Shown here piece after piece: positions 5,609-61,162 of a stretch of 64,000 nt of DNA (positions are counted from its first letter, which is position 1; every line of letters starts with the position of its first letter). Source of the stretch: Desulfovibrionaceae bacterium (lineage in GTDB: Bacteria; Desulfobacterota; Desulfovibrionia; Desulfovibrionales; Desulfovibrionaceae); contig JAVHLG010000009.1 in assembly GCA_031082225.1 (NCBI GenBank), positions 1-64,000 on the forward strand. Direction: 5' to 3'. The notes below the pieces were generated by a model that had not been told where the DNA came from, did no database searches, and saw nothing but the letters and a program-made list of their open reading frames with translations. Position numbers and translations under genes: made by a program.

Positions 5609-6721
5609 TCAGATCGCCGCCAGAATCTTTTCCACTGTGGTGGAAGGCATGTCAAAGGCCTCGCCCACGGCCCCATAGGTCAATTCACCCAGGTAGGTGT
5701 TCAGGCCCAGGGCCAGGGAGCGGTCCTGGCGCAGGGCCTCCATGCCGTTTTGGGCCAGCTTCATGGCATAGGGCAGGGTCTGGTTGCACAGGGCATAGGT
5801 GGAGGTGCGCGGCACCGCGCCCGGCATGTTGGCCACGCCGTAATGCACCACACCGTCCACCAGATAGGTGGGTTCGGCGTGGGTGGTGGCCTTGATGGTC
5901 TCCACGCAGCCGCCCTGGTCCACGGCCACGTCCACGATGACCGAGCCTTCCTTCATGGTCCCGATCATGTCCCGGGTCACCAGGCGGGGGGCCTTGGCCC
6001 CGGTGATGAGCACCGCGCCGATGAGCAGGTCGGCGTAGGTCACGGCCTTGCGGATGTTGGGCTCGTTGGAGGACACGGTGACGATGCGGCCCTGATAGAT
6101 GTCGTCGAGGTATTGCAGGCGGGAATGGTTCACGTCCAGCACGGTGACCTGCGCGCCCATGCCCATGGCGATCTTGGCCGCGTTGGTGCCGACGATGCCC
6201 GCGCCCAGGATGACCACCGAGGCCTGGGGCACGCCGGGCACGCCGCCCAAGAGAAGCCCCCGGCCGCCCTGGGATTTTTCCAGATGATGCGCGCCCACCT
6301 GGGGGGCCATGCGTCCGGCCACCTCGCTCATGGGCAAAAGCAGCGGCAGTCCCCCGCCGGGCAGTTGCACGGTCTCGTAGGCGATGCCGATGGTTCCCGA
6401 CGACAGCAGCACCTCGGTCAGGGGCTTGTCGGCGGCCAGATGCAGATAGGTGAAAAGCAAAAGTCCCTTGCGCAGGTATTGGTACTCCGCAGCGATGGGC
6501 TCTTTGACCTTGATGACCATGTCGGCGGCCCAGGCCTCGGCGGCGTCAGCCAGCCTGGCCCCGGCGGCCGCATATTGCTCGTCGGACAGGCCGCTGCCCC
6601 TTCCCGCCCCGGACTCCACGACAACCGTATGTCCGCGCCGTACCAGGGTCTCCACAGCCCCGGGGGTCATGGACACCCGGTTTTCCAACGTTTTGATTTC
6701 CTTCGGTATGCCAATAATCAT
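5609..6721 (-). CDS. ald: Alanine dehydrogenase
   Basis: The enzyme interconverts L-alanine and pyruvate plus ammonia with NAD+/NADH in the cytoplasm. The start is the ATG at 6721, preceded by GGAG, giving the family N-terminus [20 protein letters not shown] and 370 residues, the usual length. Visible motifs are IKVKEPI (substrate-binding lysine region), the TYLHLA histidine near residue 96, and the NAD-binding [16 protein letters not shown] near 170. Its place upstream of a branched-chain amino-acid importer suggests a role in amino-acid catabolism or ammonia assimilation. Confidence 0.95.
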
Positions 6722-58994: not shown

Positions 58995-59822
58995 ATGGCT
59001 CTTTCCGAACTCGAACGGTATCTTCTCTACCAATCGTCATCACAACTGCTCCAGCAGGACCTGATAACGAATGCCTTGTTTCAGGGCGGAGAGGTCGGCA
59101 AAAATTTGCGGAGTCTGCTCTTTTCTCAAAATACACTGCCCGCGCTGTCCAACCCGTATGATGAAGCGATAACCGGCACGTTGCGAGCCGACTCACGGGC
59201 AGTCCAACAAAATTCAAAAAACGTGTCCGAAGCCTCATCCATGATGGGCATAGCCAAGGAAGGGACCGCAGGGATTCAAACGGCTCTCGACGCCATGTCG
59301 CAAATGATTGACGATATCAACAGCGGAAAGTTAAGCGGATCGAGCGCAACAGTCCAGGACAATTACAAAAATCTGAAGAACGAAATCCTTGGATATATCT
59401 CCAATACGGAATTCAATGGAATATACATGCTTGACAGTTCCAAATGGGGGACTGAGCAGATTGACAACAATGGATCTGTCTACATACAGGCATTCAAAGA
59501 TGGAGGGTTCAATATAAATTTTACCGCTGTCGATGATTTGGACTTCAACGACCTTGATGCAACAAAGCTTGCCAATACCACCGACAGAAATGCGCAAAAA
59601 GCGTTGCTCGATAATCTCTCGGCAAGCATGGAGTCCATTCATTCCTCGTATGCAAGCAGGGAGACGGGATTGAACCAGCAAGCGGCCCAGTTGGAGTCCC
59701 AGTCTCTCATATTGGCGAAGGCTGCTGAAAACAGAAGACAATCACCGACAAAATCTCTTGAATCCATCATTCTTGACTTTGTAACAAACGTCAATGGCGC
59801 ACTTCTCAACGAATCGAGCTAG
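58995..59822 (+). CDS. Divergent flagellin-like protein
   Basis: The 275-residue protein matches flagellins in two parts: the N-terminal helical region (LRADSRAVQQNSKNVSEAS, GTAGIQTALDAMSQMIDDI) with YISNTEFNGIYMLD, the equivalent of the ATDFNGIYLL signature, and a C-terminal helix (LDNLSASMESIHSSYASRE, LESQSLILAKAAENRR). The classical N-terminus (MSLxIN) and C-terminal LLR ending are missing, so it may be a minor flagellin or a hook-filament junction-like protein. Codon use is AT-richer than the neighbours, suggesting recent transfer. Its ribosome-binding site is weak. Confidence 0.72.
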   Translation: MALSELERYLLYQSSSQLLQQDLITNALFQGGEVGKNLRSLLFSQNTLPALSNPYDEAITGTLRADSRAVQQNSKNVSEASSMMGIAKEGTAGIQTALDAMSQMIDDINSGKLSGSSATVQDNYKNLKNEILGYISNTEFNGIYMLDSSKWGTEQIDNNGSVYIQAFKDGGFNINFTAVDDLDFNDLDATKLANTTDRNAQKALLDNLSASMESIHSSYASRETGLNQQAAQLESQSLILAKAAENRRQSPTKSLESIILDFVTNVNGALLNESS

Positions 59823-60151: not shown

Positions 60152-60172
60152 CGACAGATTGACGATATGTCG
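60152..60172 (+). promoter_or_regulatory. Candidate activator dyad
   Basis: CGACA (60152-60156) and TGTCG (60168-60172) form an inverted repeat with an 11-bp spacer, about 97 bp upstream of the -24 element at 60269. Candidate enhancer site only. Confidence 0.25.
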
Positions 60173-60267
60173 TAGTTTTTCTATCGGGCAAGGGACAGGT
60201 GGCGGCGCATTTTTTGTGCAACCATGAATATCTCTGAAAATTCGGGATGATGCGTGCCTTAAAAATC

Positions 60268-60283
60268 TGGCATGATCGCTGCT
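60268..60283 (+). promoter_or_regulatory. Candidate sigma-54 promoter
   Basis: TGGCATGATCGCTGCT has GG (60269-60270) and GC (60281-60282) separated by 10 bp and resembles TGGCAC-N5-TTGCW with two mismatches. It lies 50 bp before the ATG at 60332. Confidence 0.5.
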
Positions 60284-60331
60284 CAGAGCCAGTCATCCCC
60301 AGATGCCGCACAACCCCAAGGAGATATGACC

Positions 60332-60613
60332 ATGAACGCCATCCGCACCGCCATCCTCACCCTGACTGTCTGCATCGGCGTCGCCCTTGCCAACCAGGCC
60401 CAGGCCTTCGACCTCTTCGGACTGCTGGATGCCCAGGAGGCGGACAGTCTGAACTCCCCCCTGGCCATCAGCAACGAACCGACCTACCTGGGCAACCCCC
60501 GGGCCATCAGCAACGAACCGACCTACACCGGCAATCCCCGGGCGATCAGCAACGAACCCGTTTACAAGGTCGCCCCCAGGGTTTCCGGCCTGACGAACGC
60601 CCTGCGCCGCTAA
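60332..60613 (+). CDS. Small secreted protein with tandem 13-residue repeats
   Basis: The 93-residue precursor starts at ATG 60332 because AAGGAG lies 8 nt upstream; the ATG at 60326 is only 2 nt from it. A Sec signal peptide (MNAIRTAILTLTVCIGVALA) is expected to be cleaved after AQA. The mature roughly 68 residues contain two complete NEPTYxGNPRAIS units and a third partial unit NEPVYKV, then VSGLTNALRR. I do not recognise the family. Few cysteines or aromatic residues occur, so a structural or adhesive role is possible. It has its own terminator and a sigma-54 type promoter. Confidence 0.72.
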   Translation: MNAIRTAILTLTVCIGVALANQAQAFDLFGLLDAQEADSLNSPLAISNEPTYLGNPRAISNEPTYTGNPRAISNEPVYKVAPRVSGLTNALRR

Positions 60614-60638
60614 CCGCTTGTGCGAGAGACCGCTGCAG

Positions 60639-60670
60639 AGTGGAACGTGTCAAAACCGTTCCACTTTCTT
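60639..60670 (+). terminator. Rho-independent terminator after the secreted repeat gene
   Basis: AGTGGAACG (60639-60647) pairs with CGTTCCACT (60657-60665), followed by TTCTT. Confidence 0.75.
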
Positions 60671-61043
60671 ATTCCCGGCTTCTGCCCCGGAATATATGGA
60701 CGCAACACGCCTCGCCGTGTCGGATCGAGGTGGGTCTCTGGATTTCGGACTTTGGGACGGACCGGGTCGCTCCGGTGGTCCCGGATGCCTGGACCGATTT
60801 CTGGCGAAGATCACCCCTGGCCCGTTTGGGCGGCCGTGGAGCGGCCCCTGATTTGCTGGAACTGCGGGGCGTCGGACATCCCTGGACATCGCCGTGAAAC
60901 GGATTGGTTCGCTTCCACCCCGGCCGCCGCATGGCGGTATGTCCCAGGCCCGGCGGATGGCGCGTGGAGACGGCCGGTTTGTCAGACGGCGTTTGTGCGC
61001 GCAGCGACCTGCGCCCCTTCGCCGAAAGGCGGCGCACCCAAAG
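60671..61043. other. Intergenic region before the tRNA pair
   Basis: No convincing gene. Longer open frames cross the tRNAs and are rejected. Confidence 0.5.
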
Positions 61044-61076
61044 AAAAAAGGGTTTGGGAGATGATCCCAAACCCTT
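61044..61076 (-). terminator. Terminator of the tRNA transcript
   Basis: AAGGGTTTGGGA (61048-61059) pairs with TCCCAAACCCTT (61065-61076) as a perfect 12-bp stem; the run of six A before it on the plus strand (61044-61049) provides the T-run on the minus strand. Confidence 0.85.
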
Positions 61077-61085
61077 GCTTTCTTG

Positions 61086-61162
61086 TGGCGGGGCCGACGA
61101 GACTCGAACTCGCGCCCTCCGACGTGACAGGCCGGCGTTATAACCAGCTTAACTACGGCCCC
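61086..61162 (-). tRNA. tRNA-Asp (anticodon GTC)
   Basis: On the minus strand the acceptor stem GGGGCCG (61162-61156) pairs with CGGCCCC, the anticodon loop reads CTGTCAC with GTC, the T-arm is GTTCGAGTC, and CCA is encoded at the 3' end (61088-61086). Cotranscribed with the upstream tRNA-Val. Confidence 0.95.

What the first reader, a model, noticed from the sequence alone, without database searches (positions are those of the whole stretch)
60268..60613. Orphan secreted repeat protein under a sigma-54 type promoter
A 93-residue precursor with a clean Sec signal, a good ribosome-binding site and two complete 13-residue repeats (NEPTYxGNPRAIS) plus one partial unit (NEPVYKV) has its own GG-N10-GC promoter, a CGACA-N11-TGTCG dyad about 97 bp upstream and a terminator. 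This self-contained, activator-type control is unusual for so small a protein and suggests a specific signal (nitrogen, redox or surface contact).
Basis: partly seen in the sequence, partly recalled or inferred. Interest (0 to 1): 0.6.

Follow-up and report, generated by a model that had tools for sequence, protein, structure and literature searches.

The report
Sigma-54-controlled small exported repeat protein
This is a real, rare gene of sulfate-reducing bacteria for a small exported protein built from three copies of a 13-residue repeat, switched on by a conserved sigma-54 promoter; the control layout is a known kind, while the protein belongs to a small family matched by none of the libraries searched, with unknown job.

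Summary
A 93-aa ORF (60332-60613) has an export-type signal, three ISNEP[TV]Y units in tandem and a terminator hairpin. A -24/-12 element (60267-60283) lies 65 bp before the start codon. Orthologs occur in both other genomes held of its genus and in Solidesulfovibrio aerotolerans, but in no other of 288 Desulfovibrionaceae or 348 Desulfovibrionales genomes. All four carry a GG-N10-GC element at -65/-66 and a shared 10-mer, CGATATNYCG, 86-111 bp upstream of it; 0 of 3000 shuffles give as good a shared 10-mer. Neighbouring genes are not conserved. The element has the same fixed letters as the one upstream of pspA in this genome. In each of the four genomes the 10-mer plus promoter layout was found at this gene only, apart from one loose-pattern match. 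So the unit is real and probably controlled alone. Sigma-54 control of a small exported protein is not unusual (ZraP). The mature part has no confident predicted fold and matched no family in Pfam, NCBIfam or PHROGs. Role: most likely an envelope or surface protein made on a specific cue (low confidence). The activator was not identified.

The parts
60163..60172 (+). CGATATGTCG, proposed activator (EBP) site; instance of CGATATNYCG shared by all four orthologs
   Evidence: 8 of 10 letters identical in four genomes; 0 of 3000 dinucleotide shuffles reach 8, 16 reach 7; 86-111 bp from the -24 element
   Evidence: present; not conserved as a dyad in orthologs
60267..60283 (+). sigma-54 -24/-12 element CTGGCATGATCGCTGCT
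   Evidence: only extended match in the window; same fixed letters upstream of pspA in this genome; GG-N10-GC element at -65/-66 in all four orthologs
60318..60323 (+). ribosome-binding site AAGGAG
   Evidence: sequence; AGGAG conserved in the three congeners
60332..60613 (+). CDS, 93 aa exported repeat protein
   Evidence: orthologs 72%, 62% and 43% identical; pairwise dN below dS
60332..60406 (+). predicted Sec signal peptide, residues 1-25, AQA|F
   Evidence: by inspection; conserved in four orthologs; no signal predictor available
60461..60577 (+). three tandem 13-residue units LAISNEPTYLGNP / RAISNEPTYTGNP / RAISNEPVYKVAP
   Evidence: three units in all three congeners, two plus a decayed one in S. 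aerotolerans
60637..60667 (+). terminator hairpin with a T-rich 3' side (TTTCTTATT)
   Evidence: z -4.8

Best explanation
A single-gene transcription unit. Sigma-54 RNA polymerase waits closed at 60267-60283. An enhancer-binding protein bound about 95 bp upstream at the CGATATGTCG site (inferred) opens it, by DNA looping, when its signal is present. Transcription starts near 60294 (inferred from the promoter type) and ends at the hairpin, giving one short mRNA. The product is exported by Sec, loses 25 residues, and leaves an about 68-residue, largely unstructured Pro/Asn/Tyr-rich chain of three ISNEP[TV]Y repeats outside the inner membrane. Its most likely role is an accessory envelope or cell-surface polypeptide made only under a specific envelope- or surface-related cue, like ZraP in logic but not in sequence. 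Shown by comparison: gene, signal-like N-terminus, repeats, promoter and shared upstream 10-mer. Inferred: that the 10-mer is the EBP site, the signal, the location beyond the inner membrane, the role.
For: Orthologs in 4 genomes with changed neighbours but conserved ORF, promoter position (-65/-66) and upstream 10-mer. Shuffle test 0/3000; shuffling only the S. aerotolerans sequence, 1/732. The 10-mer plus promoter layout finds this gene and no other in G000, G001 and G002; in G303 the loose form also gives one other match, probably chance. CTGGYANGATCNCTGCT occurs without mismatch exactly twice in the genome: here and upstream of pspA, next to a PspF-like activator gene, a classic sigma-54 target. 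dN < dS for every pair. AlphaFold2 gives block-mean pLDDT 39-53 from residue 31 on.
Against: No expression data. Four sequences only, three of them from one genus; the pairwise dN/dS ratio is not low (about 0.3 to 0.6). The 10-mer was picked after seeing the four sequences (the shuffle test allows for this within the region), and it sits in either orientation. No activator could be linked. Low pLDDT with a four-row alignment is weak evidence for disorder. The envelope/surface role rests on analogy.
Confidence: 0.5

Rival explanations
1. Precursor of short peptides: the three near-identical units are cut out by proteases after export and act as a signal or other bioactive peptide.
For: Tandem near-identical units with a conserved core and changing linkers; a papain-family protease gene lies about 1.6 kb downstream in G002.
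Against: No protease, transporter or receptor gene travels with the gene; no cleavage site common to all four is evident from the alignment; the protease is near it in one genome only.
Confidence: 0.12
2. A periplasmic metal-binding chaperone or stress accessory of the ZraP type.
For: Same size class, export and sigma-54 control; in D. vulgaris two EBPs are assigned to the envelope stress response (PMC4641369).
Against: No His or Cys in the mature protein, no predicted helical core, no family match.
Confidence: 0.1
3. The RNA is the functional product (a sigma-54-dependent small RNA) and the ORF is secondary.
For: Sigma-54-dependent non-coding RNAs exist in D. vulgaris (PMC4641369); short transcript with hairpin end.
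Against: Protein conserved to 43% in another genus with dN < dS and in-frame indels only; ribosome-binding site conserved; no Rfam match.
Confidence: 0.04
4. Spurious ORF with chance promoter-like sequence.
For: Bare GG-N10-GC is very common (1423 in the window).
Against: Conservation of frame, promoter position and upstream site across changed neighbourhoods.
Confidence: 0.02

Closest known systems
ZraP with the ZraR-controlled sigma-54 promoter (Salmonella, E. coli)
   Same: Small exported protein with its own sigma-54 promoter and an enhancer-binding activator
   Different: ZraP is a zinc-binding chaperone with its sensor-regulator genes next door (PMC4987338); here no His/Cys metal ligands, no adjacent regulator, no family match
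pspA promoter with PspF in the same genome
   Same: Same fixed promoter letters CTGGYANGATCNCTGCT
   Different: No CGATATNYCG site upstream of pspA; PspA is a cytoplasmic membrane-associated protein with its activator gene adjacent
Small EBP regulons of Desulfovibrio vulgaris (Kazakov et al. 2015, PMC4641369)
   Same: Regulons of one to four operons with an EBP site upstream of a sigma-54 promoter, many for cell-exterior functions
   Different: No ortholog of this protein was found in any Desulfovibrionales genome searched outside the two genera; the motif could not be compared with the published ones (figures not held)

Membership tests
sigma-54-dependent promoter | -24 GG and -12 GC, 10 bp apart, within YTGGCAYG-N4-TTGCW | tested here: met
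   CTGGCATGATCGCTGCT; GG-N10-GC at the same distance from the start codon in all four orthologs
sigma-54-dependent promoter | upstream activator site about 80-150 bp away | tested here: inconclusive
   shared 10-mer at the right distance; binding not shown, activator unknown
sigma-54-dependent promoter | transcription lost without rpoN | not testable with these tools
   needs an experiment
Sec-exported protein | n-, h-, c-regions with AxA cleavage motif | tested here: met
   by inspection, conserved in four orthologs; no predictor available
ZraP family | sequence match and metal-binding His/Cys | tested here: not met
   no Pfam or NCBIfam match; no His or Cys in the mature sequence
known protein family (Pfam, NCBIfam, PHROGs, PDB) | significant profile match | tested here: not met
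   none; only short or weak PDB hits (best E 0.0014, 21 residues of a 1347-residue chain, mL100)

The most novel reading that the evidence does not exclude
The repeats are released as several copies of one short peptide that acts outside the cell, so that a single dedicated sigma-54 switch makes a multi-copy peptide messenger in sulfate reducers.
Probability: 0.08. Interest if true: 0.65.

Novelty: new member of a known kind. Interest (0 to 1): 0.3.

Why it matters
It adds a lineage-restricted exported repeat protein, matched by none of the libraries searched, to the sigma-54 output of Desulfovibrionaceae. It also gives a concrete four-genome motif (CGATATNYCG about 86-111 bp upstream of the -24 element) by which its activator, and so its signal, can be looked for. 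If the signal were known it would tell what this lineage-specific envelope protein is for.

Tried and rejected
Activator by co-distribution: 23 EBP genes of the own genome compared with 26 of S. aerotolerans (carrier) and 29 of G027 (non-carrier of the same genus). Every own EBP with a reciprocal best match in the carrier also has one in the non-carrier, so none is singled out; the lists are incomplete, as 27, 34 and 35 domain matches exist.

CGATATNYCG beside EBP genes: only isolated matches, none at a matching distance from a promoter-like site.

Linkage to the flagellin-like neighbour: near the gene in G000 and G002, but no match in G001 or G303, while present in 59 of 288 family genomes; rejected.

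Mobile element at tRNA genes: adjacency in three of four genomes, but no att-like duplicate of the tRNA 3' end; left open.

Weak hits set aside: G301 is a DegP-like protease, matched in its N-terminal region; L158 Anaerobiospirillum is a longer protein sharing only signal peptide + DLFGL; plasmid hit E 0.09 in a gene annotated as hemin-binding lipoprotein; PDB hits to Hfq, E >= 0.14. Viral contigs: none.

No fold search was run because the model is not confident (pTM 0.23). My first pattern for the repeat DNA found nothing because its codons were fixed too strictly.

Full report
What is there. The window's genome has Desulfovibrionaceae as relatives: the family member G303 carries its copy on a contig of 43,473 bases, the length of the Solidesulfovibrio aerotolerans contig found independently. 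At 60332-60613 an ORF encodes MNAIRTAILTLTVCIGVALANQAQA|FDLFGLLDAQEADSLNSPLAISNEPTYLGNPRAISNEPTYTGNPRAISNEPVYKVAPRVSGLTNALRR.

Is the gene real? A profile search finds it in the two other genomes held of the genus (72% and 62% identical) and in S. aerotolerans (43%), and in no other of 288 family genomes. Across 348 order genomes one extra hit is a DegP-like protease. Reading frame, signal-like N-terminus, AFDLF around the predicted cleavage site and the ISNEP[TV]Y repeats are conserved. dN is below dS for every pair, though not strongly (from 0.34/1.14 and 0.21/0.67 up to 0.61/0.98). The neighbours differ between genomes, so the small gene, with its promoter region, is the conserved unit.

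Is the promoter real? A bare GG-N10-GC matches 1423 times in the window and means nothing. The extended form matches once, here. In all four genomes the element lies at -65 or -66 from the start codon: CTGGCATGATCGCTGCT, CTGGCATGATCACTGCT, CTGGTACGATCCCTGCT, TTGGCACAACGCATGCT. In the own genome the pattern CTGGYANGATCNCTGCT occurs without mismatch twice: here and upstream of pspA beside a PspF-like activator gene. The sigma-54 reading is therefore strong, though not experimental.

The upstream site. The best shared 10-mer in the region, in either orientation, is CGATATGTCG / CGATATTCCG / CGATATTTCG / CGATATACCG, with 8 letters identical in all four. Of 3000 dinucleotide shuffles none reached 8 and 16 reached 7; with only the S. 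aerotolerans sequence shuffled, 1 of 732 reached 8. G001 also has a longer dyad, CGATATTTC-N11-GAAATATCG (sequence). Searching the four genomes for the 10-mer plus a promoter at a similar distance returns only this gene in G000 and G303. The looser reverse form returns this gene in G001 and G002 plus one other place in G303, probably chance. This favours a regulon of one gene, within the spacing tested. The activator is unknown: comparing the EBP genes of a carrier and a non-carrier singled out none.

The protein. No match in Pfam, NCBIfam or PHROGs and no credible PDB relative. AlphaFold2 with the four orthologs models the N-terminal part as a helix and the rest with pLDDT about 39-53, which fits disorder but is weak with so shallow an alignment. 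Three repeat units occur in all three congeners; S. aerotolerans has two and a decayed one. The mature protein has no His or Cys.

Function. The explanation I rate highest is an accessory envelope or surface polypeptide produced on a specific cue. This rests on export, sequence type and the known bias of sigma-54 regulons to cell-exterior functions in D. vulgaris (PMC4641369). I give about 0.9 to the gene and promoter being real and about 0.3 to the envelope/surface role in any specific sense; the stated 0.5 is for the explanation as a whole.

Known or new. The protein family itself is matched by none of the libraries searched.

Noticed in passing
L034:1500-1600 (own genome C77, about 6222-6320): A sigma-54 element TTGGCACGATCCCTGCT followed within about 100 nt by a strong G+C-rich hairpin and no match in Rfam: candidate sigma-54-dependent small RNA. 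Whether an ORF lies there was judged only by reading the sequence.
   Followed up: partly
window 60613-61162; L023:9850-10067; L048:8283-8617: In three of four genomes the small gene lies on the 3' side of a tRNA gene, a different one each time (Asp, Ser, Asn), within about 0.1-0.5 kb; tRNA 3' ends are common insertion sites, but no duplicated tRNA end was found.
   Followed up: partly
window 58995-59822: Lower-G+C gene for a short flagellin-like protein (Pfam Flagellin_N, 275 aa), found in 59 of 288 family genomes and within about 5.3 kb of the small gene in G002 too.
   Followed up: partly
L022:10730-17564 (G002): Three proteins with Lcl_C domains, a papain-family protease and the flagellin-like gene within about 7 kb downstream of the small gene: looks like a surface-protein cluster.
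   Followed up: no
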